Source: Clostridiaceae bacterium
GTDB lineage: Bacteria; Bacillota; Clostridia; Lachnospirales; Lachnospiraceae
Direction of reading: 5' to 3'
Assembly: GCA_021200535.1 (NCBI GenBank)
Contig: JAJQGL010000007.1
Span: forward strand, 1-40,590
Length of the DNA: 40,590 nt
Below the pieces are notes generated by a model. That model was given only the letters and a program-made list of their open reading frames with translations. It was not told the DNA's origin and did not search any database. Of the stretch, positions 3,365 to 37,529 are shown one piece after another (positions within the stretch are counted from its first letter, which is position 1; every line of letters begins with the position of its first letter). The position numbers and the translations under genes are program-made.

Positions 3365-4420
<1,056 letters not shown>

Positions 4421-4447
4421 TTATTGGTTAATTGAATAAGCAATATG

Positions 4448-4954: not shown

Positions 4955-5029
4955 ATGCACCTCACCCTCGCCAAAACCGCGAGTTTTTCATCAATATTCC
5001 CAATTATATATGTATTTACACCAGATTTT

Positions 5030-5058
5030 ATTGTAACAACATGCTGTTCGTTTGTCAA
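5030..5058 (-). promoter_or_regulatory. Sigma-A promoter of ilvN-ilvC
   Basis: On the minus strand TTGACA (5053-5058), a 17-base spacer, and TACAAT (5030-5035). The transcript would start about 70 bases before ilvN. The leader shows no T-box, terminator hairpin or branched-chain-rich leader peptide. Confidence 0.78.
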
Positions 5059-5069
5059 GAAACGCAGGA

Positions 5070-5098
5070 TTGACACGCATAATATTCGGTGTTATCAT
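5070..5098 (+). promoter_or_regulatory. Sigma-A promoter of the DegV-family gene
   Basis: TTGACA (5070-5075), a 17-base spacer, and TATCAT (5093-5098). Its -35 box lies only 11 bp from the -35 box of the divergent ilvN promoter, so polymerases may compete or share an operator. Confidence 0.75.
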
Positions 5099-5205
5099 AC
5101 ATAGTATTGAAAACTACTTTTTTTTGCTATCAAAACTGCCTGTCATTTGCAGGCTTCCAAAAACAGGAAAGAGGCAGCGTGAAACGCTCCGGAATGGAGG
5201 TTTAT

Positions 5206-6042
5206 ATGTCATATCGAATTCTTTGCGACAGCTGTACGGATTTTACAGAAGAGATGGAACAGGATCCTCATTTTATCAGGATTCCTTTAATTCTCCATAT
5301 CGGAGATTATGATATTACGGATGACGAGACTTTTGATCAGCAGGATTTTTTAAAACGGACAGCCGCATATCCTGACTGCCCGAAGTCTTCCTGTCCCAGC
5401 CCGGAAAAATATATGCAATACTTTGACCAGGCGGACGATATTTATATCGTTACACTTTCCTCACATCTGAGCGGCTCTTTCAACAGCGCCGAGCTGGCTG
5501 TAAAGATGTATCTTGAGGAGCATGGCACCAAAAATCTGCATGTCTTTGATTCAAAATCGGCCTCTGCCGGACAGAGCCTGATTGCCCTGGAAATCAAAAA
5601 GCGCGCTGACAGCGGCATGGATTTTTTACAAATTGTGTCGGAAACAGAGAACTTTTTAAATACTATGGGAACAAAATTTGTATTGGAAACCTTAGACATT
5701 CTTCAAAAAAACGGACGGCTTTCCAATCTGACCGCCACCCTTGTCAACATTTTAAATCTGAAGCTGGTGATGACTTCGAACGGCAATGGCCAGATTGAAA
5801 AATGCGGTCAGGGACGCGGCATGAAAAAAGCAATCCTTAAGCTTGCCGACGCTGTTGCCGCCGACGCTGTCTCCCCAGCGGAAAGAACACTTTTTATTTC
5901 ACACTGCAACAATCCGGAGCGCGCATTGGAAGTAAAAGAAGCGGTACTTGCCAAAACGGCTTTTAAAAATGTAGTCATTGCGGCAACCGGCGGCATCAGC
6001 TCCCTTTATGCGGCAGACGGCGGCATCGTGGTATGCTACTGA
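5206..6042 (+). CDS. DegV-family fatty-acid-binding protein
   Basis: Member of the DegV family, two-domain proteins that bind a long-chain fatty acid. In Gram-positives, paralogues (FakB) present fatty acids to the FakA kinase. Visible family features are the N-terminal strand RILCDSCTDFTEEM, the serine-rich ligand loop TLSSHLSGSFNSAELA (the usual S-x-L-S-G-T/S-x-x-S-A pattern), FVLETLDILQKNGRLS, and the C-terminal ATGGISSLYAADGGI. The 278-residue length is typical. The frame continues upstream to 5089, but TGGAGG lies 5 bases before the ATG at 5206 and no ribosome site precedes the earlier ATG. It has its own promoter at 5070-5098 and a ~100-base leader. Its stop is 7 bp from that of the convergent transglutaminase-like gene. 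Which fatty acid or partner it uses cannot be told from sequence. Confidence 0.93.
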   Translation: MSYRILCDSCTDFTEEMEQDPHFIRIPLILHIGDYDITDDETFDQQDFLKRTAAYPDCPKSSCPSPEKYMQYFDQADDIYIVTLSSHLSGSFNSAELAVKMYLEEHGTKNLHVFDSKSASAGQSLIALEIKKRADSGMDFLQIVSETENFLNTMGTKFVLETLDILQKNGRLSNLTATLVNILNLKLVMTSNGNGQIEKCGQGRGMKKAILKLADAVAADAVSPAERTLFISHCNNPERALEVKEAVLAKTAFKNVVIAATGGISSLYAADGGIVVCY

Positions 6043-6049
6043 TATCCCA

Positions 6050-7225
6050 TCAGATTTTTTTCTTCACAGTATATAGCTGACCCTGTTTATAATAACGGAA
6101 AAACAGCTTTGTTTTGCTGCATTTGAGCTGACAAAGATAACAGCCGGATGGCGCAGTATATTTTTTACTGACCTTTTTGGTTGAAAGATTGATCTGGTAA
6201 ATCGATTGACCCGAAATAAAAAAATACCGGTTATTCGAATATCTGACCAGGCAGTCCGCTCCCATTGCTTTTATCCTGGCTGCTTTTTTGGCAATTCCTG
6301 TCCGGGAGTAAATACCAGAAGAAGTGCCATACACAAAGCTGCCGGACTGATACCAAAACGCAGTTTCTACACCGCGCCAGAACGCACTGTCATAGGACCG
6401 GTCTGTTGCCTTTGAAGCAGAAAAACCATAATGTCCCTGTTTTTTGACAGCTGCATTGCTCAGCAGAAAATTCTTGTGCAGTACAATACCAAACTGATCT
6501 TTTTGGTTCGCGGCATTTAAGGAATCATCCCATGTCACATCGACATGATACCAGTTCGAATGAATCTGCACCAGATTCCACATGTGCGACATTTTATCTG
6601 ATTCTACACATTTCGCGCGAATCCCCGCCTGCTCCAGCAAAAACAGATACGCGACAGAATATCCCTGGCAGTTTGCCTTATGCTGCAGCAGCGCGCCCAC
6701 CTCTGACAGCCGGTCTACCGCCTTGCTGTTGTCTGAATAAGAAACCTTCCGTACCAGATAATCATGTAACAGCAGCGCTTTCTCGATATCTGTCATATCA
6801 TCCGTAATCGTTTCGGCCGCTTTCTTTGCCGCCGCATTCAGCCTCTTTCTGACAGAGGCGATTTTTTTCTTATTCACCGCTTTACCTGATTTGTATTTTG
6901 ATGCATAGGAGAGATGAATTTTTACAACCTGCTGCGTTTCCGCAATGATTTCTTTGGAAAAAGTCCGCCCATTGTAAAAAATGCCCGGCGTCTCATTGAA
7001 AACCTGCGCCATGGCAGACGCAATTTTTTTGCTGCCTGCTGTCGTGTTGTAAACTTTATATTCTGTTACATCGACAGTCGTTTTGCCATCCTCATATGCC
7101 TCGATAACCGCCTGTTTCACACCGGCATAATCAGCAGCCGCCGCTCTCGTCCCGGAGAACAGCGGCAGCAAAAATAGCACGAGAAAAAATATCCTGTATC
7201 CCATCTGTTTTTTTCCTTCTGCCAC
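6050..7225 (-). CDS. Secreted transglutaminase-like protein
   Basis: Exported protein with a papain-like transglutaminase core. A signal peptide is clear (YRIFFLVLFLLPLFSG, then Ala-rich TRAAAADYA). The core has the triad Cys186 in KANCQGYS, His214 in SHMWNLV and Asp229 in YHVDVTWDD, numbered from the GTG start. The last ~130 residues look like short beta-strand repeats (FWYQSGSFVYGTSSGIYS, YFFISGQSIYQINLS), possibly a small propeller-like or cell-surface binding part. The family includes peptidases and cross-linkers, so the reaction is not fixed by sequence. Two starts are possible: GTG at 7225 with GGGAAGGA about 10 bases upstream, or ATG at 7204 with AAGGA about 9 bases upstream. The signal peptide is intact in both. 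It lies 20-40 bp behind the DUF815 ATPase gene. Confidence 0.87.
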   Translation of the reverse strand: MAEGKKQMGYRIFFLVLFLLPLFSGTRAAAADYAGVKQAVIEAYEDGKTTVDVTEYKVYNTTAGSKKIASAMAQVFNETPGIFYNGRTFSKEIIAETQQVVKIHLSYASKYKSGKAVNKKKIASVRKRLNAAAKKAAETITDDMTDIEKALLLHDYLVRKVSYSDNSKAVDRLSEVGALLQHKANCQGYSVAYLFLLEQAGIRAKCVESDKMSHMWNLVQIHSNWYHVDVTWDDSLNAANQKDQFGIVLHKNFLLSNAAVKKQGHYGFSASKATDRSYDSAFWRGVETAFWYQSGSFVYGTSSGIYSRTGIAKKAARIKAMGADCLVRYSNNRYFFISGQSIYQINLSTKKVSKKYTAPSGCYLCQLKCSKTKLFFRYYKQGQLYTVKKKI

Positions 7226-7245
7226 CGTGCATCCATCCTTCCCTT

Positions 7246-8556
7246 TTATTCGTTTATGGCAGTACCTGCCAGATAATTAATAAACTGCTGCGCTGTGCGG
7301 CCGGAAATACCGCCATGACTCAGCTCCCATTTATTGGCTTCTGCGATCAGCTCTTCATCCGTCAGGGTAATTTCAGGATATTTTTTTGCTAATGTTGTGA
7401 CAATACGGAAAAATTCTTTTTGATTTGGGCGGTAAAAGCCGATCGTTACGCCAAAACGCGCCACTAAAGACAGCTTTTCCTGCATTGTGTCCGAACGGTG
7501 CAGCTCATCCTGAGACATGTCAGACCGGTCGCTCCATGTCTCACGAATCAGATGCCGGCGATTTGATGTTGCATAGATCAGAACATTTTCCGGTTTCGTT
7601 TCCAAACCGCCCTCAATCACTGCCTTTAGATATTTGTATTCAATCTCAAACTCTTCAAATGACAAATCATCCATATAAATCACAAATCGGTAATTGCGGT
7701 TTTTAATCTCTGAAATAACCTTTGACAAATCTTTAAATTCATGTTTATAAACCTCAATCATACGAAGCCCGCGGCTATAATACTGATTCAGAATCGCTTT
7801 AATACTGGTAGATTTTCCCGTTCCGGCATCGCCAAACAAAAGAACATTATTTGCCTTTCTGCCCTCAACAAAAGCCTCTGTATTTTCAATCAGCTTCTGC
7901 TTCTGGGCATCATATCCAACCAGGTCATCTAACGTCATATCCCCCGTTGCCGTGATCGGGCTTAAAATACCAAACTGCTCCTTGTGTGAAATACGAAAAG
8001 CCTTATTTAAGCCAAATTTTCCAACGCCATACGTCTTATAAAAATCCGTCATAATACGGTACATCTCATCCTCATCTGCCGCATTTTCAATCTGCCGGCT
8101 CAGCATCTGCACCTTTTCACTGACGCTTTTGTTAAAAATCTGCTCACTCTTTACCACTGCATTATAATGCGTCACCACATCAAAACAGTTAATGTCCAGC
8201 TCTTTTTCCAGTGTTGTAAAATCATAACAAAACAGCTTTTGGAATATAGCAAAATCTGCTTTGGCAAATTCATTGACTGTCCCCTCGTTTGCCCCCACCT
8301 TTTCTGATACCAGTGTGAACGGATTTTCATTCATCGCAAGAAGAAAAGCAAGATAATTGTGCCACAGATTTTTGTCAAATCCGTAGCGGGTCGATAGCTC
8401 CAGCAGACGGTGAATCTCTGCGTAAATCTCTGTGATCAGGTCCTCCCTGACAAAATTTCCGGACGCAAACCGCTGACAGATATCTGCCAGCCGGTAAAGA
8501 ATACTGTCCTCTCCAAATTTTCGGTAAATGACCAGCTTTGATGTGAAACGATACAT
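7246..8556 (-). CDS. DUF815-family AAA+ ATPase
   Basis: Cytoplasmic P-loop ATPase of the DUF815 group. The C-terminal half carries the whole ATPase core: [21 protein letters not shown] (family hallmark preceding the P-loop), Walker [13 protein letters not shown] at ~244-255, Walker [13 protein letters not shown], sensor-1 [13 protein letters not shown], and an arginine-rich segment [20 protein letters not shown]. The ~220-residue N-terminal region is helical and less conserved. The role of the family is not established. Start chosen at 8556 (MYRFTSKL), with AAGGAG 7-8 bases upstream; an earlier in-frame ATG at 8580 lacks a good site. 436 residues. It sits between argS and the secreted transglutaminase gene on one strand, probably one transcription unit, without functional explanation. 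Confidence 0.9.
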
Positions 8557-8622
8557 CTCTCTCTCCTTTCTTACCTGCAAAGCTTACCCGCGAACCCTGC
8601 CGTGCAGTCTGCCTGTCCCAGC

Positions 8623-10389
8623 CTACATTTTTTCAGGCGCTTCCAGGCCCAGCAGCCCAATACCTGTTTCCAGCACACTGCCAACCAGACGGCTCAGGCA
8701 GATATAGGATTTCCGAACCGATTCCTCCGGATTCGTCACAATTTTGTTCTCGTGGTAAAATTTATTAAACGCATCTGACAGCTCATATACAAATTGGCAG
8801 ATCTTGTGCGGCGCCTGCTCCGCAAATGCTGTTTCTACCGTCTCCGCCCATCTGGAGAGCGCAAGCATCACATCCGTCTGCGTCTTATTTGCTTCCGGCT
8901 GAATCCGGGCATCCGGCTCCACCTCAATTCCCAGCTGCGCAACTTTATTCATCAGCGACTTAATACGAACGATCGTATATAAAATATATGGTCCTGTATT
9001 CCCCTCAAACGAAGTAAATCTCTCCACATCGAAAATATAATCCTTTGATGCCTGATTACTCAGATCACCATATTTGATTGCTGCCAGACCGATCTTTTCT
9101 GCGGCTTTTTTTCTCTCTGTTTCCTCCATTTCCCGATCCGCCATCTTTTCTTCCACCTGGCTGACCACATCCTGCAAAAGTGTTTCCAGTCGAAGCACTC
9201 CGCCATCACGGGTTTTAAAAGGCTTCCCATCCTTTCCATTCATTGTGCCAAAGCCGACAAAAACAAGCTCGACATCTTCACCAATGATTTTTGTTTTTTT
9301 CGCACAGCGGAATACCTGCTCAAAATACAGGGACTGACGCTTGTCTACCACATAGATAATCTTTTGCGGATCAAATAATTTCCGCCGCTCGACAATGGTC
9401 GCCAGATCGGTTGTATTATACAGGGTTGCCCCATTTGATTTTAAGATCATACAAGGAGGAATTTCTTTCGTATCCGTCTCCTCTTTCACATCTACCACAA
9501 GCGCGCCATCATCAATATGTGCGTAGCCTCCGTCTTTCATTGCCTGAACCATATCCGGGATATATGGCTGTGCATCCGATTCCTTTTTCCACAGATCAAA
9601 GGAAACATTTAGCTTACCGTAAATAACTGCCAAATCTGCCACAGAAACGTCCAGAATATGCTTCCAGAGGGCCAGATAACCTTTTCTGCCTGCCTGCAGC
9701 TGTGCCGTTGCCTCCTGCGCCTTTGCCCTGTACGCTTCATCCTCTTTGGAACGCCCGCTCGCATACGGATAAATTTCCTCCAGGTCAGACATGGTAAACG
9801 GCGGTTCTGACGGATATTCTCCCTGATAATCTTCATCAAAATAGACAAGCTCCGGCTGCCTGTCTGCCAGTTCTGTAATGATCAGTCCAATCTGCAGCCC
9901 CCAATCTCCCAGATGAGCGTCACCTATTACATGGTAACCAAGATATCTCGCCGTCCGTTTAATGCTCTCACCGATAATTGCTGAGCGAAGATGCCCGACA
10001 TGAAGCGGTTTCGCCACATTCGCACCGCCAAAATCTATGACAATCGTATCTTCCTTTTCCGCCTTTGCGCAGCCATACAATTCATCTGCCGCCATCTGGT
10101 TGATATACCCTGCCAGAAACGCATCGCTTAGAATCAGATTGATAAAACCGGGATTCTGTGCTGTCACTTCGGCAAAGCATTCACTTTGCCCCAAAAAGCC
10201 GGTAACCTCCTGCGCTATCTGGATTGGCGCCCGGTGATATTCCTTGGCCGCAGCAAGCGCACCGTTGCACTGATACTGGCACAAATCCGGCCGGTTCGAA
10301 ATCGTAACCTTTGCATAATCCGGAGAATACCCCGCACGTTCAAATGCTCCTTTTAACTCATCCTGCAATATTTCAATAATTTTTTTCAT
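8623..10389 (-). CDS. argS: Arginyl-tRNA synthetase
   Basis: Class I aminoacyl-tRNA synthetase charging tRNA-Arg. At 588 residues it has the N-terminal Add1 domain (residues ~1-100), the catalytic HIGH motif as HVGHLRS in GGANVAKPLHVGHLRS (~127-133), and the insertion CP domain. The region corresponding to KMSK reads GKPFKTRDGGVLRL, the usual non-canonical form in bacterial ArgRS. The anticodon-binding domain of helices ends QFVYELSDAFNKFYHENKIV, a hallmark of the family. Starts MKKIIEILQDELKGAF with a GGAAGGAAA ribosome site. No T-box is visible upstream; the 60 bp between aroA and argS has no terminator, so it may be co-transcribed with aroA and the DUF815 gene. Confidence 0.98.
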   Translation of the reverse strand: MKKIIEILQDELKGAFERAGYSPDYAKVTISNRPDLCQYQCNGALAAAKEYHRAPIQIAQEVTGFLGQSECFAEVTAQNPGFINLILSDAFLAGYINQMAADELYGCAKAEKEDTIVIDFGGANVAKPLHVGHLRSAIIGESIKRTARYLGYHVIGDAHLGDWGLQIGLIITELADRQPELVYFDEDYQGEYPSEPPFTMSDLEEIYPYASGRSKEDEAYRAKAQEATAQLQAGRKGYLALWKHILDVSVADLAVIYGKLNVSFDLWKKESDAQPYIPDMVQAMKDGGYAHIDDGALVVDVKEETDTKEIPPCMILKSNGATLYNTTDLATIVERRKLFDPQKIIYVVDKRQSLYFEQVFRCAKKTKIIGEDVELVFVGFGTMNGKDGKPFKTRDGGVLRLETLLQDVVSQVEEKMADREMEETERKKAAEKIGLAAIKYGDLSNQASKDYIFDVERFTSFEGNTGPYILYTIVRIKSLMNKVAQLGIEVEPDARIQPEANKTQTDVMLALSRWAETVETAFAEQAPHKICQFVYELSDAFNKFYHENKIVTNPEESVRKSYICLSRLVGSVLETGIGLLGLEAPEKM

Positions 10390-10449
10390 TCTGTCCGTTT
10401 CCTTCCTATCATGTCTAATGCCAAGCCCGGAATATTTTTCCAGACTTTT

Positions 10450-11769
10450 TCAATCTGCTTTCTGCGCTGTGCAAATCTGATCCAGAACAGAAAAATAGTC
10501 TGGAAAAGTTTTCCGGCAGCAGTCCGGATCCGCAATCACAATTCCTTCTGTCCGCAAACCGGTTACTGCAAATGACATGGCTACCCGGTGATCGTTGTAA
10601 GTCATAATCTCTGCCCCATGGAGTTTTCCCGGATAAATCACAATGCCCTGTTCCATCTCTTCACAGCGGATTCCCATTCTTGCCAGCTCTCTTGCCATGA
10701 CCGCAATCCGATCCGACTCCTGTCCGCGGATATGCCCAATCCCTTCCATCCGAACCACGCCATCCGCATACGGTGCGATCGCTGCCATAGTCAGCGCCTG
10801 GTCTGAAAAATCGCTAAACGAAGCGGTAATTCCTTTCAGTTCACCGTGCGCCGGTCCGGTCACAACCAGCTGCTCCCCTGTCAGTCCCTGCACGGATTCC
10901 CATTCTGCCGCACAGCCCATCTGCTGCAGCACATTTACAAAACGCATATCCCCCTGCAAAGAATCACGCCTTACATGGGGAACCAGCGCACTCCCGCCTG
11001 TCACAGCCGCCATTGCATAAAAATAACAGGCGGCAGACACATCCGGTTCTATCCGGTAGGACTGTGCCTGATAGACAAATCCCGTTACCCGGTAACAATC
11101 CCGATTGATTTTTTGTACGCCGGGATGCCCAAACTGCCGCATCATCTGCTCTGTCATGGCAACATAAGACCGCGCATTCCGTTTTCCCGTCAGGGTTATC
11201 GTAAGTTCCTTCCAGCAAAGGGGTGCTGTCATCAAAAGCGCGCTTAAAAACTGGCTGCTCCGGTCAATATTCACAGAAACTGCCGCTTTTTCCCCCGCTC
11301 CTATCCCCTGAATCACCATCGGAAAATGATACGGCTCCTGTTCATAAGCAATCTTTGCGCCCAACTGCTCAAGCGCCTCTAACAGCTCCCGCATCGGTCT
11401 TTTTTTCATCTGCGCCGACGAATCAAGGCGGTATTTCCCATCACTCATCGCAAGAAAAGCGGTCAGAAATCTTGCCGCCGTGCCTGCACTTCCCACATAT
11501 ACCTCCGCTTCGTTCCGCGGAATCCTTCCGCTTTCCCCTGTTATGCGGACACGCTTTTTTTCTCTGTCAATCCGAACCGTAAAGCCCAAATCCTGCAATG
11601 CTTTTAAGAAACAATCAGAATCATCGCTAAAAAGCACACCGTCCAGCTCCGATTCCCCTCTTCCCATTGCCGCCATCAGAAGTGCCCGGTTGGTGATACT
11701 CTTTGAACCGGGCACTTCCTGCCGAATCTGTAATGGCTGCTTTACTGTTTTAACCAAATATCGCTCCAT
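10450..11769 (-). CDS. aroA: 3-phosphoshikimate 1-carboxyvinyltransferase (EPSP synthase)
   Basis: Condenses shikimate-3-phosphate with phosphoenolpyruvate to EPSP, step six of the chorismate pathway. The 439-residue two-domain protein shows GSKSITNRALLMAA (substrate-binding Lys, Ser and Arg, ~21-34), the phosphoenolpyruvate loop VGSAGTAARFLTAFLA, KKRPMRELLEALEQLG, the hinge and shikimate site SSQFLSALLM, and the catalytic FSDFSDQALTMAAIAP and YNDHRVAMSFAVTGL with GQESDRI. The loop around the active-site glycine reads GSAGTAARF, unlike the GNAGTAMRPL of class I enterobacterial enzymes, so it belongs to the more divergent class. GAGG lies 7 bases before the ATG. Upstream is the GGDEF-like gene, whose alternative-frame tail would stop only 9 bp before this start, hinting at past translational coupling. 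Confidence 0.97.
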   Translation of the reverse strand: MERYLVKTVKQPLQIRQEVPGSKSITNRALLMAAMGRGESELDGVLFSDDSDCFLKALQDLGFTVRIDREKKRVRITGESGRIPRNEAEVYVGSAGTAARFLTAFLAMSDGKYRLDSSAQMKKRPMRELLEALEQLGAKIAYEQEPYHFPMVIQGIGAGEKAAVSVNIDRSSQFLSALLMTAPLCWKELTITLTGKRNARSYVAMTEQMMRQFGHPGVQKINRDCYRVTGFVYQAQSYRIEPDVSAACYFYAMAAVTGGSALVPHVRRDSLQGDMRFVNVLQQMGCAAEWESVQGLTGEQLVVTGPAHGELKGITASFSDFSDQALTMAAIAPYADGVVRMEGIGHIRGQESDRIAVMARELARMGIRCEEMEQGIVIYPGKLHGAEIMTYNDHRVAMSFAVTGLRTEGIVIADPDCCRKTFPDYFSVLDQICTAQKAD

Positions 11770-11790
11770 CCCGAATCCTCATTTCCTGTT

Positions 11791-11865
11791 TTGACTATCA
11801 GCGCCCTGACTGCCACTGTACTGACCGGCAGTGTATTGATTTTCAGCGCCCTGACCAGAACTTTA
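11791..11865 (-). repeat. Five degenerate 15-bp tandem repeats at the GGDEF gene end
   Basis: Five consecutive 15-mers of the form YTGAYNNNCAGYGYM on the plus strand start at 11791, 11806, 11821, 11836 and 11851. The outer pair share 13 identical bases (TCAGCGCCCTGAC, 11798-11810 and 11843-11855). The 15-bp period is five codons. On the minus strand one frame is open across all of them and encodes Gln-ended pentapeptides such as GAENQ, YTAGQ, YSGSQ and GADSQ. The annotated GGDEF-protein frame instead stops inside the repeats at 11843. Confidence 0.75.
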
Positions 11866-12337
11866 CAGAGCCTTTTCCATGCCGTTTAACCTCATCCATT
11901 GCTTCACTCGCCGCGTAATAGATTGTATCAAAATCTCTTCCCATGTCACTGGTCACCGCAACTCCGATACTTGCCGTAACAACAAGCGAGCTGTTCCCAT
12001 CCGAAATTGTTTTTTCCAGCGTAGTGCAAAGCTCATGCAGACGGATATCAAAATTGGTGCCCTGTTTGATATTTTTTGCAAAAATCACAAAACGCCCGCC
12101 CTGAATCCGGCTGATAATATCCTCCTCATGAAAAAACTCCCGCAGTGTGTTCGCTGTCTCCTGCAGAATTTCATCTCCCTTTTCCATTCCAAACATCTTA
12201 TTAACCTGATTGAGCCCGTCGATATCCAGTACAATCGCTGCTCCTTCTTTGCTCTCCCCGGCAAGATACTCCCTGATTTGTGTCATACAGCTGTCCTTAT
12301 CCAATAAGCCAGTCAGGCGGTCTTTCTTATCTCTCAT
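11843..12337 (-). CDS. Stand-alone GGDEF-fold protein with degenerate signature
   Basis: A diguanylate-cyclase-type fold with no sensor domain: DRLTGLLDKDSC, the first metal aspartate in IVLDIDGLNQVNKMFG (~36-50), GDEILQETANTL, and C-terminal VTASIGVAVTSD and AMDEVKRHGKG. The signature loop is not GGDEF but QGGRF (residues 79-83, in RIQGGRFVIF), so both acidic signature residues are gone. c-di-GMP synthesis is therefore unlikely; binding or a regulatory role is possible. Start with GAGGTG 4 bases before the ATG. The reading frame stops at 11843 inside a 15-bp tandem repeat. Removing one A from the AAA of GTAAAG (about 11864-11869) would extend it by a 27-residue Gln-rich repeat tail ending 9 bp before aroA, so a recent frameshift (or sequence error) is likely. 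A weak promoter candidate lies at 12488-12516. Confidence 0.82.
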   Translation of the reverse strand: MRDKKDRLTGLLDKDSCMTQIREYLAGESKEGAAIVLDIDGLNQVNKMFGMEKGDEILQETANTLREFFHEEDIISRIQGGRFVIFAKNIKQGTNFDIRLHELCTTLEKTISDGNSSLVVTASIGVAVTSDMGRDFDTIYYAASEAMDEVKRHGKGSVKFWSGR

Positions 12338-12350
12338 ATTTCACCTCATG

Positions 12351-12420
12351 TCGCGCCCGCAGGAAGCGGCTAATGTTAAATCGAATAAATTCGATTGACG
12401 CTGGCGGAGCCTGCGACGCC
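12351..12420. repeat. Imperfect ~70-bp palindromic element
   Basis: The core AATCGAAT-AA-ATTCGATT (12379-12396) is a perfect 8+2+8 dyad. The outer arms CGCCCGCAGG (about 12354-12363) and CCTGCGACGCC (about 12410-12420) also pair, with partly complementary GC-rich sequence between. The whole resembles a dispersed extragenic palindromic repeat. It would lie in the 5' leader of the GGDEF-like gene. Whether copies occur elsewhere in the genome cannot be seen here. Confidence 0.55.
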
Positions 12421-12487
12421 AACTCGTAGTTTTAGTACATCGAAAAACAGGGCAAATTATCCAAAACTGAATTTTCACTGTACTAAC

Positions 12488-12516
12488 ATATAAAAACACT
12501 AACCATTAGTATACAA
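12488..12516 (-). promoter_or_regulatory. Candidate promoter of the GGDEF-like gene
   Basis: Minus strand TTGTAT (12511-12516), 17-base spacer, TTATAT (12488-12493). It would give a leader of roughly 140 bases that contains the palindromic element. Motif match only. Confidence 0.35.
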
Positions 12517-12718
12517 GACTTTTTTCTAAAATTCAATGTTTTCCAGCTGCCCTTTCCTTCTCTCTTTCCTTCTTCTTTTTCTCTTTTTATTTTGCATATG
12601 TCAGACAGGGAAGCGGCTCCTGCTGAAAAACTGTCTGCAACTTTCCCGGCGCTGTGACATATACTTTTTTAAAAGCAAAGCAGCGGTATTGTATCCGGCC
12701 GCTTATTTGGAGGACTTT

Positions 12719-13468
12719 ATGAGAACAAGAAGAGGTATTGACGTATCGAAATGGCAGGGACGCATCCACTGGCGCCGCCTGCAAAGAGAAAAAATCCAGT
12801 TTGCAATGATTCGGATTGGATTTGGGAGCAGCGACGGAGAATGTACCAGAGATTCGTATTTTCGGCAGAATATGGATCACGCACTGGAAGCAGAAATTGA
12901 TGCCGGTGTTTATTTTTATACCAATGCACGCACAGAAAGCAGTGCCAGACGGGAAGCTGACTGGGTTATTCGGGAGCTGCGTCCCTACTACGGAAAGCTC
13001 TCTTATCCGGTTGCTCTCGACATTGAAGATTCCTCCCTCGAATCCCTGAGCAGAGAGGAAAACACAAACAATGTACGCACATTCTGTCAGGCTATACGAG
13101 AGGCGGGTTATTATCCGATGTACTACACATATCTTTCTTTTTTGGAAAACTTTCTCCGATATGACAGGCTGGGCGAATACGATCTGTGGCTCGCAGCGTA
13201 CACCTCCGAAGCGCCGCACCAATATCGCTATGATATGTGGCAGTACAGCGACAGAGGGCGCCTGGACGGGATTCACGGTTATACAGACCTTGATCACAGC
13301 TTCCGCAATTACCCGGCCATTATCCGGCAGAGCCGGGACAATGAACCTGTCTTAGCAGCAGGAATGGAAGAAATCACTGCACATCCTGTCAATGGCGCAA
13401 ATCATAGTCATCCAGAAAATGATGCTTTATCCCATCCTGCTTATAGGCAATCACCGTACTTAAATTAA
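12719..13468 (+). CDS. GH25 muramidase (Cellosyl/LytC-type lysozyme)
   Basis: Glycoside hydrolase family 25 cleaves the MurNAc-GlcNAc bond of peptidoglycan. The 249-residue protein is essentially one TIM-barrel: RGIDVSKWQGRIHW at ~5-18 with the first catalytic-site aspartate, FAMIRIGFG, GVYFYTNA, the acidic pair in PVALDIEDSS (the D-x-E element), YPMYYTYLSFLE, DLWLAAYTSE and the closing MWQYSDRGRLDGIHGYTDLD. Start chosen at 12719, where GGAGG lies 5 bases upstream. It gives no signal peptide, as in phage-type muramidases. The open frame reaches 12536 and would add a hydrophobic N-terminus, but without a ribosome site. The last ~50 residues lie past the fold, and the final 80 bp overlap the convergent TtcA-type gene, so the tail is probably a late extension. 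Confidence 0.88.
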   Translation: MRTRRGIDVSKWQGRIHWRRLQREKIQFAMIRIGFGSSDGECTRDSYFRQNMDHALEAEIDAGVYFYTNARTESSARREADWVIRELRPYYGKLSYPVALDIEDSSLESLSREENTNNVRTFCQAIREAGYYPMYYTYLSFLENFLRYDRLGEYDLWLAAYTSEAPHQYRYDMWQYSDRGRLDGIHGYTDLDHSFRNYPAIIRQSRDNEPVLAAGMEEITAHPVNGANHSHPENDALSHPAYRQSPYLN

Positions 13469-14231
13469 CGTTTTCCACACTTTTAAATATGTTGCCCTCC
13501 ACCGACGGATTGATTTTTTTCATTTGCCGGATCAGCTCCTTTACCTCCTGTCTTTTTGATGTATTCTGTTCATCATTGCAGGATGCACTGTTTTCCGTAA
13601 ACCGGCATGCGCACTGTATGAAAGCAAGCTTATTGTAATCCCTCCACGCCAGGATACTCTCTTCCCGAATCAGATACATCGGGCGGATCAGCTCCATTCC
13701 TGCAAAATTTGTACTGTGCAGCTTCGGCATCATTGTCTGTATCTGCGCGCCATAAAGCATCCCCATCAAAATAGTTTCGATGACATCATCATAGTGATGC
13801 CCCAGGGCAATTTTGTTGCAGCCCATCTCCTGCGCCTTGCTGTAGAGATACCCCCGGCGCATTCTGGCGCACAGATAACAGGGTGATTTTTCCACATGGT
13901 AAACGGATTCAAAAATATCTGTTTCAAATACTGTAATCGGTATGCACAGCCGCTCCGCATTTTTCCGTATCATTTCCAGATGTTCCCTGCTATATCCCGG
14001 ATTCATAACAAGATATACGGTTTCAAATGGAACTTTATGATATTTCTGTAATTCCTGAAACAGTTTTGCCATCAGCATGGAATCCTTCCCGCCGGAAATG
14101 CAAACTGCAATCTTATCACCCTCTTTTACAAGCTCATACCGTTTCACTGCTTTCGTAAATCTGGACCATATTTCCTTTCTGAATTTTTTCTTTATGCTCT
14201 GCTCCACATCAAAACAAAATGATTGCTCCAT
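13389..14231 (-). CDS. TtcA-family PP-loop ATPase (tRNA thiolation type)
   Basis: ATP-pyrophosphatase of the TtcA/TtuA group, which activates a tRNA base with AMP and inserts sulfur. Visible elements are the PP-loop AVCISGGKDSMLMAKL (~43-58), VYLVMNPGYS, the cysteine pair SPCYLCARMRRGYLYSKA, the nucleotide-site GHHYDDVIETILMGMLYG, MMPKLHSTNF and LIRPMYLIREESI, and a further cysteine pair in IQCACRF that could complete Fe-S cluster ligation. These match TtcA-type enzymes, though the tRNA position (C32 or another) is not certain in Clostridia. The start at 14231 (MEQSFCFD) has AAAGGA just upstream; an earlier in-frame ATG at 14276 would overlap the upstream HtrA-like gene. The 3' end overlaps the convergent muramidase gene by 80 bp. 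It lies 31 bp behind the HtrA-like gene and is likely in the same operon. Confidence 0.88.
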   Translation of the reverse strand: MEQSFCFDVEQSIKKKFRKEIWSRFTKAVKRYELVKEGDKIAVCISGGKDSMLMAKLFQELQKYHKVPFETVYLVMNPGYSREHLEMIRKNAERLCIPITVFETDIFESVYHVEKSPCYLCARMRRGYLYSKAQEMGCNKIALGHHYDDVIETILMGMLYGAQIQTMMPKLHSTNFAGMELIRPMYLIREESILAWRDYNKLAFIQCACRFTENSASCNDEQNTSKRQEVKELIRQMKKINPSVEGNIFKSVENVNLSTVIAYKQDGIKHHFLDDYDLRH

Positions 14232-14262
14232 TGTCCTTTCCTTCCTCTGTGTCATGTCTTTT

Positions 14263-15570
14263 CTATCCAAGCACAATGCTTAATTCCTTTTTTACCAGCT
14301 TTTTCCCCGACTTCCGGTAAACGGTATATGCAATGATATCGTCCGTCTTGTGCCGGAGCAGAATCTGATAAACATCCGCCATTCCCGTCACTGTTTCTCC
14401 GTCCATTTCCGTAATCACATCTGCCACCCGCATTCCGCTTTCATATGCCGGCGCGCTGGAGTAAACCTCTGTCACATACGCCCCCTGCTTCAAACCGTGC
14501 GCTGATGCTGCTGTTTCGCTGATGGTCCGGCCGGTAAATCCCATATAAGGCATCTCTTCCTTTTGCTGTAAAATTTCCATAATGCCGGAAATATTATCAA
14601 TATCAATAAAAGACAATGCGGTTGTGCCTGCCGTTTGTTCAAATCCCTGCGCAATCACTCCGACAACCTTTCCGTCTGTATCCAGCACTACACCGCTGTT
14701 GCAGTCAGAATACGACATACTGGTACTGTACAGATTCAATTCTCCATCCGTAATGGAGGCGCGCAGGTCGTCGTTGGTGACCTGTCCTGTCATAACAGAA
14801 TACATGACACCATTCGGACATCCAATCGCCACCACGCTGCTTCCATTGACCAGCGAAGAGGAACTGCCAAACACGGCAATCTTCATTCCAGAAAGAACCT
14901 CTTTGTCAATTTTTGATTTCCTGATTCGGATTACTGCAATATTTACCCTGGCATCAACGCCCAAAATCTCACCAGTAACCTTGATGTCCTCTGATACCAG
15001 CACCTCAACCTCTGACTGATCTTCCGTGACATCACTTGTCGTCATAATATCAAAATAACGGTCTGATTCCGCAAAAAGAATCCCTGCCGCACTGCCAGTC
15101 TCTGTACTGTCATCCTCCGAAAACCACTTGCTGTCCTCAACTCCCTGAACCTGTACAACGCATCCCTGCTGCCCGGTTCCAACTGCGGCCAGCCGCTCAC
15201 TCAAATCATTCCATCCCTCTACAGACATTTTCTTTTTGACCGACTTTCCGTCCGCTCCGCCAGACGGCAGAGGAGATGATGGAGGTTCCTCGTCTGCACG
15301 GTACGTCTCCTGTTTCTTCTCTTCCTGCTCTTTGTCATCTGCATATTTTTGCATAGCCAGTATAATGCTTCCCGCGACTACACCAAAAAAACACGCCGAA
15401 AGAAAAATCAGACCGGCCTTTTTTAAAACAGCTGCCAGATTTTTCTTTTTCTGCGGCTGCACCTGCTCCTTCATAAACTGATACCGCTCATCCCGGTGTG
15501 CATCTTTTTTTTCGTTCTGTTTTTTGCGTTGTATCATCTCTGTAATCCCCCGCTTCCGACCGTGGTTCAT
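14263..15570 (-). CDS. Membrane-anchored HtrA/DegP-like protein, probable pseudoprotease
   Basis: Architecture of a Gram-positive HtrA: a basic cytoplasmic segment of ~50 residues, one transmembrane helix (~52-73, AGLIFLSACFFGVVAGSIILA), an acidic linker, a chymotrypsin-fold domain (~130-335) and a PDZ domain (~345-432, YMGFTG ... GAYVTEVYSSAPAYESGMRVADVITEMDG). The catalytic triad is broken. The strand normally TNNHV reads TTSDV, so His becomes Asp180. The usual TDLAV reads VNIAV, so Asp becomes Asn210. Only the nucleophile remains, Ser292, and its GNSGGPL loop has become CNSGVVL. The fold is still well conserved (VAIGCPNGVMYSVMTGQV, LDTDGKVVGVIAQG), so this is most likely a folded non-catalytic protein that binds peptides or lipid II-side partners through PDZ. 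Ribosome site AAAGGA lies 8 bases before the ATG. It heads the minus-strand pair with the TtcA-type gene. Confidence 0.88.
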   Translation of the reverse strand: MNHGRKRGITEMIQRKKQNEKKDAHRDERYQFMKEQVQPQKKKNLAAVLKKAGLIFLSACFFGVVAGSIILAMQKYADDKEQEEKKQETYRADEEPPSSPLPSGGADGKSVKKKMSVEGWNDLSERLAAVGTGQQGCVVQVQGVEDSKWFSEDDSTETGSAAGILFAESDRYFDIMTTSDVTEDQSEVEVLVSEDIKVTGEILGVDARVNIAVIRIRKSKIDKEVLSGMKIAVFGSSSSLVNGSSVVAIGCPNGVMYSVMTGQVTNDDLRASITDGELNLYSTSMSYSDCNSGVVLDTDGKVVGVIAQGFEQTAGTTALSFIDIDNISGIMEILQQKEEMPYMGFTGRTISETAASAHGLKQGAYVTEVYSSAPAYESGMRVADVITEMDGETVTGMADVYQILLRHKTDDIIAYTVYRKSGKKLVKKELSIVLG

Positions 15571-33636: not shown

Positions 33637-33665
33637 TAGTCACATTCCGCCGCTTATGATACAAT
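33637..33665 (+). promoter_or_regulatory. Candidate sigma-A promoter of the GrpE-like/Hsp70-like pair
   Basis: TAGTCA (33637-33642), 17-base spacer, TACAAT (33660-33665), about 50 bases before the GrpE-like start. It is divergent from the flagellar-class promoter. No CIRCE-type inverted repeat is seen. Confidence 0.45.
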
Positions 33666-33718
33666 AATAAATAAGAAGACCGAGCATGCTTACATGTATA
33701 AAAATTATGGGGGTATCT

Positions 33719-34414
33719 ATGACAAACCAGACTTATGATGAACAGGAGCTGCAGCGTTCCCTGCAGCAGTCCGTCCAAAAGCTCAGACAGGAAGAAAAGA
33801 ATGCTTCCCTTTTTCAAGAATACGGAGCGGATAACAAAACGGCAGACTCCGAACCAGAAAACAAGATAGAACAACTCGAAACACAGCTCGAAAGCACCAA
33901 AAAGGAACTTCTTGCAGTAAAACAGAGGCTGCAGGCTTTAGAGAGCAACCGCGACGAATACAAAAACAAATATTTTCAATTTAAGGGTATTTTTCAACGG
34001 CAGACACATACTTTTTATTTGTACCAAAGCCTTTCCACACAAAGCAGGAATGCCCTCCACGGCGTATTCAAGGGAAATTCCTTTGAATCCTTTCTGGCCT
34101 GCGGCGTCCAGCCGGACAATATAGACACTGTCTGGGAATTCTCCCGCAGCCTTGCGCTGGAAGGAAATCTCGAAGATCTGGAAATCCTGCAGACAATTAT
34201 TGTCTATTTTGTCAAAATGTACAATAAAACACACGATTCACCAGTCCTTGCCTTTCAGGAAACTGCCCCGGGAGACCGCTTTGATGTTGACCTGCACATC
34301 CGCACGCAGGACAGTAAGGCTGCCGGAATCATTACAAAAGTATTGCTTACCGGCCTGACCAACGCATTTTCAGGCGACATAATCAAAAAATCTGTCGTCG
34401 AGATTAAATCATGA
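33719..34414 (+). CDS. GrpE-like nucleotide exchange factor (divergent)
   Basis: A 231-residue soluble protein. Residues ~45-95 form a clear coiled coil (EQLETQLESTKKELLAVKQRLQALESNRDEY), followed by an unrecognised helical region (~95-180). The last 47 residues match the GrpE head: PGDRFDVDLHIRTQD, AAGIITKVLLTGLTNAFSGDIIKKSVVEI. This reproduces FD-x3-H ... G-x-(I/V)-x2-V-(L/M)-x2-G ... G-x2-I-(K/R)-x3-V-x-(V/I) of GrpE, including the glycine spacings. GrpE proteins use a coiled coil plus beta-head to release ADP from Hsp70. An Hsp70-like gene follows 112 bp downstream on the same strand, which supports the reading. No DnaJ or HrcA is present. The start at 33719 has GGGGG 6 bases upstream; the frame reaches 33686. 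The overlap with the real GrpE family is at motif level only and awaits profile search. Confidence 0.68.
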   Translation: MTNQTYDEQELQRSLQQSVQKLRQEEKNASLFQEYGADNKTADSEPENKIEQLETQLESTKKELLAVKQRLQALESNRDEYKNKYFQFKGIFQRQTHTFYLYQSLSTQSRNALHGVFKGNSFESFLACGVQPDNIDTVWEFSRSLALEGNLEDLEILQTIIVYFVKMYNKTHDSPVLAFQETAPGDRFDVDLHIRTQDSKAAGIITKVLLTGLTNAFSGDIIKKSVVEIKS

Positions 34415-34431
34415 ATCTAACGATTCATGAT
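34408..34431 (+). repeat. Perfect inverted repeat at the GrpE-like stop codon
   Basis: ATCATGAAT - CTAACG - ATTCATGAT forms a 9-bp stem with a 6-base loop and encloses the TGA stop of the GrpE-like gene. No T-run follows. It could limit read-through into the Hsp70-like gene or act as an operator. Confidence 0.6.
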
Positions 34432-34526
34432 CTTGCTGCACCCTCACATTATTATATCTTGAATGGATCGAACTATTACAACATATATCATTTATCATTT
34501 TTGTATGATTTGAGAAGGAGGAATTT

Positions 34527-37500
34527 ATGAACATTTCAACAAAACAGGTCAATAAAATTGCCATTGGGGAAGAGCTTTTTCATGAAGTTGTCGATGAACA
34601 CATCCCTGTTTTAATCAAAAAACAAACGGCCGTTCTGAATGATTTTTTCCATCAGATGAACCAATATATCACAAAGCACACGGAAACCTCTGACTGGTTT
34701 TATATCAGCAACCAAAACATTCTTTACAACAATGCAATCGTAGCACTGTTCCCAAACCTCAATGACTTTGAGCTGGGACACTGCCCGCTGAACCGCTCCT
34801 ACGATCCGGTTACCTTTCACAATGATTTTTCGGACTACAGCGGTACGCTGATGACTCCAAATGAATTTAAACGCGCATTTGCCGGAAAATTTGACAGCCT
34901 TTATGAATTTTGTCCGGAATATCTGTTTGACGGCTATTTTACAGTAATGGATTTTCACAGGGCGCTTCATGCAGACGGAATCCGCTCAAAACGCTGGAAC
35001 GGTTTTTCCAGGCAGGAGGCATATCATATTCCGCTGTACCGCTTAAACGGTATGGACAGTGAAACCATTCCGCCTGCCAAAACACTGCATTTCTGGCTTG
35101 ACCACAATCTGATACCGGATGATCTTCCGTCCGAGTATATTGCCACATATGAACACACACTTTCTCTGTATCAGGCAAGCAAAGAAAGCTTTGAATGGAA
35201 CGGAGATATCATTAAAATCCGCGAGGATGTCATCTTAGAGAACATTATGAGCGGAAAAGCAAACTTTTTTTCCGAGGATTCGTACCGTTCCTCTTTCCTG
35301 TATAATGCCAGAGAAAAAAGCATCTCTCTGGATAACCTGTCAGAATCTGCCCTGCAGATTGTAAAGGAACATCTTTTGTGCTGCGACCAGATCCGCGCTG
35401 ATTTTGACCGCTACGACGAAAACATTCTGATTGACCCCAACCGCGGCCACTGGGGGCTTTGGCAGGATCAAAATTCCACCTGCAAATATACTGCAAAGCT
35501 AAACACCCCGCTGATTGCACGCAATCCGGCAGCTGACATTAACACGGACGGCATTATCGGTATTGACTTCGGCACAAAAAGCACCGTTGTGGCATATCAG
35601 GACAACACAGAACGCATTACCCCTATGCGAATCGGCACCAGCCATTACTCCAAAAAGGCTGACTTAAAACAATACGAAAACCCTACTGTGATGGAACTGA
35701 TCAACCTGAAACGCTTCCTGGAACTGTACAACCAAAAAGAGGGGCGCCCGGATACGATGTGGGAAGACCTGACCATCTCACACACTGCCGGAAGCAGCAT
35801 GATGAACAGCACCAGCAATGACTATTACACCTATTTTAATGAGCTCAAGCAATGGGCCGGCAGCCAGAAAAAACAGATCCGCTTAAAAGATAAGGCTGGC
35901 AATGACATCTCATTACCTCCTTTCTCTGAAATTAAAGAAGGCGACTTCAATCCAATCGAAATTTATGCATATTACATTGGTCTTGCAATCAATAACATGA
36001 ATAACGGCATTTTCTTAAATTATCTGTTATCGTTTCCGGTTACATTTGAACATGCTACCTGCGATAAAATTGTAGACAGCTTTTACCGCGGCATACGCAA
36101 ATCGCTTCCAGACACGATTCTCCGGGACGAGCAGATCATGAAAAACTTCCGTGTAATCAAAGGTACCTCAGAGCCTGCCGCATATGCTATCTGTGCCCTG
36201 GAATCCTACGGATTTGACCTGGAAAACGGCGAATCCGAGGTTTATTATGGTATCTTTGATTTTGGCGGCGGCACAACAGATTTTGACTTTGGCCACTGGC
36301 ACACGCCAAATGAAGCGGACAGCCGCCGGTACGATTATGTTCTGGAATGTTACGGAAGCGGCGGCGACCAGTACCTGGGCGGCGAAAATCTCCTGCAGCT
36401 CATGTCATATGAGGTTTTCCGCGCCAATCAGGATAAGCTCCGCGACGACAATATTACCTTTTCTCTTCCGCCGGAATGCCAGCCATTCCCGGGCAGCGAA
36501 TCGCTGATCAGTGATTCGCAGGAAGCAAAGCTAAACACCAGGCAGCTGATGGAAAAGCTGCGCCCATTCTGGGAGCGCCCGGCAAATTACTCCGCACAGT
36601 ACCAGACTGGGAAAATCAAACTCTCCCTGTTTACAAAAACCGGTGAACAAAAACTCAATTATGAGCTGAATGCAAACATGACCCTGCTTGACCGCCTTCT
36701 CCATAAGCGCATTGAGCTTGGTATCGCCAATTTTTTTGAGTGCTTAAAGGCAACATTCAAAGAAAAGCTGGGGACTGACATTCACAAAATCCATATTTTC
36801 CTCGCAGGTAACGGAAGCCGTTCCCAGATATTGACAGAGCTTTTTGAAACATATATGGTAACCTATGCAACCGATTTGCGCTATCATCTGAACACAAGCA
36901 TCGACAATGATTTCTTTGAGTTGCATCCGGCGCTTGGCATGGATGATACCGCACCGGAAAAACCGGCAGCTGCGCAAATTCCATCTGCTATTGATTCCCT
37001 CAGGCAGACCTCCGAAATCGGCGATCTGGCGCAGAACATCTTTTCTTCTGCCAGCCAGCAGGATGAGATCCTGTCTATTACAAAACCAAACGGAAAAACC
37101 GGAGTGGCATTTGGCCTTCTGGAGGGACGCCCTGGCGGACGCATTAAGGTTATAATGCCAAAAAGCCAGGATGTTGCAAAAACGGTTTCCGATATTCGTT
37201 TCCGCTTTTACATTGGATATAAAAAGAAAAACCGTTTTCAGATGATCTCTGATCCGACGCTGCCTTATCACAAATGGACCTATCTGTGCGACGCGTCATC
37301 AGAAGATTTTGCAATTTATTATACACCGCGCTCTGAGGCAGCAGGCGGCAATATGGATATCTTTAATGCCTACAAGAAAAACTGCAGGCTGACAAAGACA
37401 TATCCGGACGCTGCCATTTATTATCGCGCAACAGCGCCGGATACAATCGAATATACGGTCTTTGGAAATGACGACAAAAAAGCGGAAAAAGCTTTGGAAC

Positions 37501-37529
37501 CGCTTACCCGTGTAGAACTGGTATATTAA
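34527..37529 (+). CDS. Hsp70/actin-fold ATPase with unrecognised flanking domains
   Basis: A 1000-residue protein whose middle is a full Hsp70/actin-type nucleotide-binding domain. It has phosphate-1 GIIGIDFGTKSTVVAYQD (~342-358), connect-1-like LLSFPVTFEHATCDKIVDSFYRGI (~499), the SEPAAYAIC element (~548), phosphate-2 YGIFDFGGGTTDFDF (~574-588), the adenosine motif IHIFLAGNGSRSQ (~755-767), and GVAFGLLEG (~859). The glycine-rich loops and catalytic-type acidic residues are intact, so ATP binding and hydrolysis are expected. Unlike DnaK, the domain is preceded by ~340 residues with no recognised motif (includes DPNRGHWGLWQ) and lacks the usual beta-sandwich substrate domain and helical lid. 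The C-terminal ~140 residues (KKKNRFQMISDPTLPYHKWTYL ...) form a different, beta-rich-looking domain. No membrane segment. Ribosome site AAGGAGG lies 7 bases before the ATG. Partner of the GrpE-like protein upstream; the substrate is unknown. It ends at the bidirectional terminator. Confidence 0.85.
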   Translation: MNISTKQVNKIAIGEELFHEVVDEHIPVLIKKQTAVLNDFFHQMNQYITKHTETSDWFYISNQNILYNNAIVALFPNLNDFELGHCPLNRSYDPVTFHNDFSDYSGTLMTPNEFKRAFAGKFDSLYEFCPEYLFDGYFTVMDFHRALHADGIRSKRWNGFSRQEAYHIPLYRLNGMDSETIPPAKTLHFWLDHNLIPDDLPSEYIATYEHTLSLYQASKESFEWNGDIIKIREDVILENIMSGKANFFSEDSYRSSFLYNAREKSISLDNLSESALQIVKEHLLCCDQIRADFDRYDENILIDPNRGHWGLWQDQNSTCKYTAKLNTPLIARNPAADINTDGIIGIDFGTKSTVVAYQDNTERITPMRIGTSHYSKKADLKQYENPTVMELINLKRFLELYNQKEGRPDTMWEDLTISHTAGSSMMNSTSNDYYTYFNELKQWAGSQKKQIRLKDKAGNDISLPPFSEIKEGDFNPIEIYAYYIGLAINNMNNGIFLNYLLSFPVTFEHATCDKIVDSFYRGIRKSLPDTILRDEQIMKNFRVIKGTSEPAAYAICALESYGFDLENGESEVYYGIFDFGGGTTDFDFGHWHTPNEADSRRYDYVLECYGSGGDQYLGGENLLQLMSYEVFRANQDKLRDDNITFSLPPECQPFPGSESLISDSQEAKLNTRQLMEKLRPFWERPANYSAQYQTGKIKLSLFTKTGEQKLNYELNANMTLLDRLLHKRIELGIANFFECLKATFKEKLGTDIHKIHIFLAGNGSRSQILTELFETYMVTYATDLRYHLNTSIDNDFFELHPALGMDDTAPEKPAAAQIPSAIDSLRQTSEIGDLAQNIFSSASQQDEILSITKPNGKTGVAFGLLEGRPGGRIKVIMPKSQDVAKTVSDIRFRFYIGYKKKNRFQMISDPTLPYHKWTYLCDASSEDFAIYYTPRSEAAGGNMDIFNAYKKNCRLTKTYPDAAIYYRATAPDTIEYTVFGNDDKKAEKALEPLTRVELVY

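What the first reader, a model, noticed from the sequence alone, without database searches (positions are those of the whole stretch)
33637..37529. Private Hsp70-like/GrpE-like pair outside the dnaK locus
Two adjacent plus-strand genes encode a coiled-coil protein with the GrpE head signature at its C-terminus (last 47 residues) and a 1000-residue protein with an intact Hsp70/actin ATPase core. In E. coli and B. subtilis, GrpE is the exchange factor of DnaK; a second, divergent pair as a separate two-gene unit suggests a dedicated ATP-driven machine with its own client. No dnaJ, hrcA or CIRCE element is seen. The role (chaperoning an envelope or flagellar client, or a conflict/defence function) is inference. 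The pair lies next to, and divergent from, the flagellar unit.
Basis: partly seen in the sequence, partly recalled or inferred. Interest (0 to 1): 0.85.

Follow-up and report, generated by a model that had tools for sequence, protein, structure and literature searches.

The report
Private Hsp70/GrpE-like chaperone pair
Two neighbouring genes of a gut bacterium encode a very divergent relative of the chaperone Hsp70 and its private GrpE-type helper; kin of the pair elsewhere often sit among bacterial toxin-delivery and defence genes, which suggests an interchangeable ATP-driven core for microbial conflict that this lineage keeps on its own.

The parts
33637..33665 (+). promoter-like site upstream of the pair (TAGTCA-17-TACAAT with an extended -10); the TATGnTAnAnT block is kept in 5 of 5 clade members
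   Evidence: such consensus matches in the region are about as frequent as in shuffles (10 against 6.8 +- 2.9), so the conservation is the argument
33719..34414 (+). gene for the GrpE-like protein ('c1', 231 aa)
33851..34027 (+). long helix of c1 (residues 45-103), the stalk-like part
   Evidence: AF2 model, pLDDT mostly over 90 there
34037..34228 (+). short helices of c1 (residues 107-170); holds the clade motif ACGVQPxNIDxxWEF
34271..34411 (+). GrpE-type beta head of c1 (residues 185-231)
34527..37529 (+). gene for the Hsp70-like ATPase ('c0', 1000 aa)
34527..35543 (+). N-terminal extension of c0 (residues 1-339), no family found; near its end the family signature RADFxxYDxxILIDPNRGHWxLW (residues about 287-311, 35385-35459)
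   Evidence: much shorter in the lone relatives of one family
35544..37166 (+). Hsp70-type nucleotide-binding domain of c0 (residues 340-880 of the model)
35550..35600 (+). phosphate-1 motif GIIGIDFGTKSTVVAYQ (342-358)
36243..36299 (+). phosphate-2 motif YYGIFDFGGGTTDFDFGHW (573-591)
36789..36833 (+). adenosine motif IHIFLAGNGSRSQIL (755-769)
37209..37526 (+). C-terminal beta-rich part of c0 (residues 895-1000), at the place of an Hsp70 substrate-binding domain; identity not established
   Evidence: AF2 strands; low-confidence extension of the HMM alignment

Best explanation
The pair is a private, highly diverged Hsp70-type ATPase (c0) with its own GrpE-type nucleotide-exchange factor (c1). 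Inferred cycle: c0 binds ATP and a client through its non-canonical extensions and hydrolyses ATP; the beta head of c1 docks on the nucleotide-binding domain and frees ADP, so that c0 lets go and resets. In other genomes the same core is joined to swappable conflict cassettes (HerA-like ATPase with c10; VgrG/Hcp/PAAR-toxin with immunity protein; WXG100/FtsK/nuclease with immunity protein; dynamin-like GTPase). I infer that there it prepares, holds or gates effector proteins, or senses attack. In the window's lineage it stands without a cassette and is kept under strong purifying selection, probably as a domesticated chaperone or sensor. Shown: homology of both proteins, intact ATP-site motifs, linkage, distribution, neighbourhoods. 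Inferred: ATP hydrolysis, exchange, physical contact, client, and the conflict role.
Against: Neither protein meets PF01025 or PF00012; NCBIfam gives c0 only weak HscA/DnaK hits (0.004 at best) and for c1 a GrpE model only at E 6.6 over the coiled coil; hmmsearch of c1 against the PDB finds no GrpE at E up to 1. Fold Z for c1 is only 5.7-6.5, a level that the tool says unrelated folds can reach. In one family c1 occurs without c0 and c0 without c1, some beside chemoreceptor genes instead of conflict genes; G723 has an intact c0 and no c1. The six degenerate lone c0 are one clade, so they are one event. The window has no cassette, and its genome (91% complete) has no match to the HerA-like protein. 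High constraint and fixed synteny fit a housekeeping role as well. No contact, ATPase or exchange data.
Confidence: 0.62

Rival explanations
1. The pair is a specialised housekeeping chaperone with a fixed cellular client in this clade, most simply a motility or chemotaxis protein; conflict neighbourhoods elsewhere reflect recruitment of the same chaperone.
For: Same place in 5 of 5 clade members, beside flagellin/FliS/DUF6240 genes as far as the contigs reach. In another family chemoreceptor (MCP) genes flank lone c0 genes (L054, L060), a CheV-like gene and MCP genes precede the G327 pair (L049), and two MCP genes precede an orphan c1 (L151). Conservation like that of the neighbouring aminotransferase; no HerA-like match in the genome. 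A same-genus genome without the pair also lacks the flagellar genes at this place.
Against: MCP genes are many in such genomes (recalled, not counted) and their chance rate as neighbours was not measured; in the other pair loci I recognised no motility genes next to the pair, though not every neighbour was searched; promoter of sigma-A type; the DUF6240 neighbour evolves much faster (48-52% identity).
Confidence: 0.3
2. The pair is an anti-phage or anti-element sensor: c0 holds an effector inactive and lets go when phage proteins load the chaperone, with c1 setting the threshold.
For: WYL regulator, HEPN and dynamin-like genes and an integrase at the Acinetobacter locus; HerA/c10 cassette shared with a DUF2357/AAA (CoCoNuT-like) plasmid locus; thresholding chaperones are proposed for conflict systems, some with HSP70 and GrpE (PMC7159879, passages).
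Against: No PADLOC match for c0, and for c1 only coiled-coil matches at E 0.0015 or worse; the window pair has no effector gene recognised beside it and evolves slowly.
Confidence: 0.25
3. c1 is not a nucleotide-exchange factor: it is a coiled-coil adaptor that kept a GrpE-like head for another purpose.
For: Orphan c1 copies in genomes or places without c0; low sequence similarity to GrpE; very variable coiled coil.
Against: The head is the part matched to GrpE; tight linkage to c0 in the phylum sample; intact c0 ATP sites in the loci that hold a c1.
Confidence: 0.15

Closest known systems
DnaK-GrpE (canonical Hsp70 and its exchange factor)
   Same: fold of the nucleotide-binding domain and its motifs; GrpE-type beta head after a long helix; adjacent genes
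   Different: no Pfam match for either; c0 is 1000 aa with about 340 extra N-terminal residues and no recognised linker, substrate-binding domain or lid; no dnaJ, hrcA or CIRCE seen beside it; accessory distribution
GTPase-centred conflict systems with HSP70 and GrpE (eLife 2020, PMC7159879; passages read)
   Same: HSP70 plus GrpE as an accessory gene set, in Firmicutes too; inferred thresholding role
   Different: those sets lie with TRAFAC GTPases and DnaJ/FNIII proteins; this genome holds what looks like one, with Pfam-detectable Hsp70s, at C41 (L160), separate from the window's pair
Type III-A CoCoNuT operons and their extension cassettes (eLife 2024, PMC11090510; passages and section 10 read)
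   Same: an Hsp70-like protein in a conflict operon; cassettes that answer the same three descriptions (WXG100/FtsK/nuclease; CDC48-like AAA; HerA-type ATPase with a small helical protein) appear beside c0/c1 or its distant kin
   Different: no McrB/McrC core recognised beside c0/c1 in the loci seen; GrpE is not named in the main text (0 occurrences); their Hsp70-like proteins are described as having degenerate ATP-site motifs, paired c0 has intact ones
Type VI/contractile and Type VII toxin-delivery operons
   Same: VgrG-, Hcp- and PAAR-like or WXG100/FtsK proteins with nuclease toxin and immunity protein beside three relatives
   Different: no such part was recognised beside the pair in the window; an Hsp70/GrpE chaperone for such effectors was not found in the searches named in Tried and rejected

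Membership tests
GrpE (PF01025) | profile match above the curated cut-off | tested here: not met
   only the canonical grpE rings in the own genome; no GrpE family for c1 in Pfam at E up to 10
GrpE (PF01025) | C-terminal beta head homologous to GrpE | tested here: met
GrpE (PF01025) | long N-terminal helix and helical bundle before the head | tested here: met
   helices 45-103 and 107-170 precede the strands; whole-length overlay on 3a6m_A is poor (141 aligned, 14.6 A), so the arrangement differs
GrpE (PF01025) | dimer that binds Hsp70 and speeds ADP release | not testable with these tools
   needs protein
Hsp70 | Hsp70-type nucleotide-binding domain with phosphate-1, phosphate-2 and adenosine motifs | tested here: met
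Hsp70 | PF00012 match over cut-off | tested here: not met
   no Pfam family at E up to 10; a distant relative (L058) scores 14.4 bits against a cut-off of 20.6
Hsp70 | interdomain linker, beta substrate-binding domain and helical lid | tested here: inconclusive
   C-terminal beta part modelled but aligned to DnaK only at low confidence; not folded or searched alone
GTPase-centred HSP70/GrpE conflict systems | TRAFAC GTPase gene(s) in the locus | tested here: inconclusive
   none recognised by eye among the ORFs around the pair; not every neighbour was searched. One relative (L057) has a dynamin-like GTPase next to the pair
CoCoNuT (Type IV restriction) | McrB-like GTPase and DUF2357 protein | tested here: inconclusive
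   none recognised beside the pair; a DUF2357 protein is annotated only at the Photobacterium locus, where neither c0 nor c1 profile finds a partner in the six proteins tested
Known anti-phage system (PADLOC) | match of c0 or c1 to a defence model | tested here: not met
   c0: 0 families at E up to 10; c1: only coiled-coil matches at E 0.0015 or worse; two relatives of c0: 0 families at E up to 0.01

The most novel reading that the evidence does not exclude
c0/c1 is a previously undescribed, portable Hsp70/GrpE core that drives or gates interchangeable toxin-secretion and defence cassettes across bacterial phyla, much as the McrBC core does in CoCoNuTs. When the ATP site dies, the exchange factor is lost; some lineages, including the window's, have domesticated the core as a stand-alone chaperone or sensor.
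Probability: 0.36. Interest if true: 0.85.

Novelty: new variant of a known kind. Interest (0 to 1): 0.6.

Why it matters
Hsp70 chaperones are among the best-known ATPases, yet this branch meets neither standard Pfam family and comes with its own cryptic exchange factor. If it is a shared core of toxin-delivery and defence operons, it links three kinds of conflict machinery (VgrG/PAAR, WXG100/FtsK and HerA cassettes) through one chaperone cycle. It would also give a small two-protein system for asking how an Hsp70 works without a canonical substrate-binding domain.

Tried and rejected
Flagellar or chemotaxis role: not rejected. I first meant to write that no relative outside the clade is near motility genes.

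Phage origin: 0 of 50,697 phage records; 49 pattern hits but no confirmed relative in viral contigs. Plasmids: 2 of 72,556.

Own-genome cassette: no HerA-like match. The tool warns that an empty answer alone shows little, and the genome is 91% complete; VgrG, WXG100 or toxin genes were not sought in it.

GrpE by plain HMMER: no GrpE in the PDB at E up to 1. Foldseek 'pdb' search of c1 was never accepted; only the VIA second look was obtained. The ends of c0 were not folded or searched alone, so their folds are untested.

c0 as CnuD: the c0 profile finds nothing in six proteins of the Photobacterium CoCoNuT-like locus, but that locus may lack CnuD, so this is inconclusive. G456 (L058/L059) has a distant c0, but its coiled-coil neighbour does not match the c1 head (E 0.62); I left it out of the pair counts.

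Counts. Weak c0 hits were treated as ordinary Hsp70s: 14 of 28 genomes (E 1e-4 to 1e-3) and G070. Weak c1 hits treated as chance: G203 (coiled coil only) and G250 (stops inside); these two were nevertheless counted against co-occurrence. In one search at most two candidates per genome were scored, so c0 may be undercounted. Matches below Pfam's curated cut-off that I still use as labels: Hcp-like (E 0.0024), AHH (1.5e-4, just under) and Phage_GPD, WXG100 (4.8e-5). The first GrpE comparison used some wrong-strand frames and was replaced.

Literature. The listings of searches showed no description of this pair. Two papers were read in part (PMC7159879 passages; PMC11090510 passages and section 10); the rest were seen as search listings only. 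The library holds no preprints and lacks most subscription journals.
Full report
Observation. Two plus-strand genes encode c1 (33719-34414, 231 aa) and c0 (34527-37529, 1000 aa). The canonical dnaK and grpE lie on another contig (C20), and a tandem pair of Pfam-detectable Hsp70 genes lies on C41. Pfam gives nothing for c0 at E up to 10 and for c1 no GrpE, only coiled-coil-type hits.

Linkage. Among 398 genomes of the phylum c0 is in 6 (window's genome included) and c1 in 5 of those 6 and in none of the other 392 (Fisher p 7e-11, or 5e-9 without the window's genome). Among 250 genomes of the family three have both; one more has a weak c0 hit and one a weak c1 hit. In another family (24 genomes) linkage fails: c0 in 7, c1 in 6 (one weak), both in 3 (p 0.31). 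Pairwise distances of c0 and c1 correlate (r 0.94 with all 18, 0.73 in 13 and 0.77 in 10 after thinning); shared ancestry explains part of this.

A natural experiment. Phosphate-2 GGGT is intact in 24 of 24 readable c0 copies from loci with a c1 (21, one of them with its c1 on another contig; three read). Of seven lone copies six have lost it (GAYT, GATT or GAGN), four of them with Asp-to-Asn in phosphate-1 too; the seventh, G723, is intact. The six form one clade, so this is one event, in line with c1 being needed only by a cycling ATPase.

Neighbourhoods. Outside the window's clade (and setting the distant G456 aside) 15 pair loci were read. Eight have a HerA-like ATPase plus the c10 protein (G240, G341, G356, G385, G504, G576, G818, Acinetobacter plasmid); G504 is split over two contigs, so its unity is inferred. 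G770 has a DUF4280 PAAR-like/AHH nuclease protein, an Imm11 immunity protein, a weakly Hcp-like and a VgrG-like protein, and G902 has homologues of these and a further Hsp70 gene. A Helicobacter plasmid has a WXG100-like protein, a WHH nuclease, a SUKH immunity protein and an FtsK/SpoIIIE ATPase. G413 has a dynamin-like GTPase. In three (G173, G327, G367) I recognised no cassette. WYL regulators stand upstream at the Acinetobacter locus and in G770. A tyrosine integrase follows the Acinetobacter locus; serine recombinases lie near the G173 and G413 loci. The HerA/c10 cassette also occurs beside annotated DUF2357 and AAA genes on a Photobacterium plasmid, where no c0 or c1 was found in six proteins tested. 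It answers the description of the 'EccE3-HerA plus small helical protein' extension of CoCoNuT III-A, one of three cassette types in that paper; proteins like those of the other two types appear beside c0/c1 (Helicobacter) and at the distant G456 locus. That these are the same cassettes is my inference from descriptions.

A second kind of neighbour. In the family where linkage fails, five of the six degenerate lone c0 genes stand next to an AsnC/aminotransferase gene pair (L053-L056, L060). Chemoreceptor genes flank L054 and L060 (and a near-identical one L055) and lie about 3 kb away in L056. The G327 pair (L049) follows a CheV-like gene and chemoreceptor genes, and one orphan c1 (L151) follows two chemoreceptor genes. 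Other orphan c1 genes (L148, L149, L150, L152) show no such neighbour that I recognised. The window's pair itself adjoins a DUF6240, flagellin and FliS unit, with a chemoreceptor gene 7 kb off. Chance rates were not measured.

The window's lineage. Four relatives keep the pair at the same place. c0 is 76-88% identical while synonymous sites are near saturation (pS 0.74-0.79; dN/dS 0.02 in the one c0 comparison where it can be computed), like the neighbouring aminotransferase; c1 is 61-68% identical, with a variable coiled coil and conserved middle and head. A same-genus genome lacks c0 and c1; there TrmL-aminotransferase-AsnC follow other genes and the flagellar segment is absent from the place. 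The window's genome has no HerA-like match. The pair thus looks like a vertically kept stand-alone unit with its own promoter, not a recent mobile insertion.

Mechanism. Shown: homology, intact site motifs, linkage, neighbourhoods. Inferred from DnaK-GrpE knowledge: c0 cycles ATP and c1 releases ADP. Inferred from neighbourhoods: the clients elsewhere are effectors or translocase parts of conflict systems. The client in this genome is unknown; my first guess is a domesticated holding or sensing role, and a motility or chemotaxis client is the main rival.

Novelty. Hsp70 with GrpE in conflict loci is known, and Hsp70-like proteins in CoCoNuTs too. A Pfam-invisible Hsp70/GrpE pair that recurs with VgrG/PAAR, WXG100/FtsK and HerA cassettes did not appear in the named searches. 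I rate it a new variant of a known kind.

Noticed in passing
L160 (own genome contig C41, 4000-20000), locus 3941-14707: Two Pfam-detectable Hsp70 genes (552 and 741 aa), a coiled-coil protein, a long protein with a J-domain-like start and Zn-ribbon GTPase-like proteins: looks like the GTPase/HSP70/GrpE/DnaJ conflict system of eLife 2020. Labels other than Hsp70 are by eye.
   Followed up: partly
L155 (NZ_CP076735.1, Photobacterium damselae plasmid): HerA-like ATPase and c10 homologue beside annotated AAA and DUF2357 genes and a csm6 ring nuclease, without a c0/c1 match in six proteins tested: CoCoNuT-like locus with the same cassette.
   Followed up: partly
No sheath gene was recognised in the stretch read.
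   Followed up: partly
L049, L054, L055, L056, L060, L151: Chemoreceptor (MCP) genes and in L049 a CheV-like gene close to c0 or c1 relatives of one family; whether this exceeds chance is open (L055 by similarity to L054 only).
   Followed up: partly
L058/L059 (G456, both ends of contig C1): Distant c0 with a radical-SAM activase-like protein, a tandem AAA (CDC48-like) ATPase and coiled coils. The matching inverted copy at the other contig end may be an assembly artefact.
   Followed up: partly
L148, L149 (G405, G286): Orphan c1 genes in genomes where no c0 was found; in L148 a TerD protein and two like it lie about 9 kb away.
   Followed up: partly
L047 17296-18024, L048 9459-10217, L101 19113-19655: LRAT-domain genes near three pair loci (L048 by similarity to L047).
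   Followed up: no
L010 694-1294: Apparent tandem repeats of about 63 bases between the DUF6240 gene and c1 in one close relative, seen only in the ORF translations.
   Followed up: no
window 1-40590: No Rfam family reaches its gathering score.
   Followed up: yes
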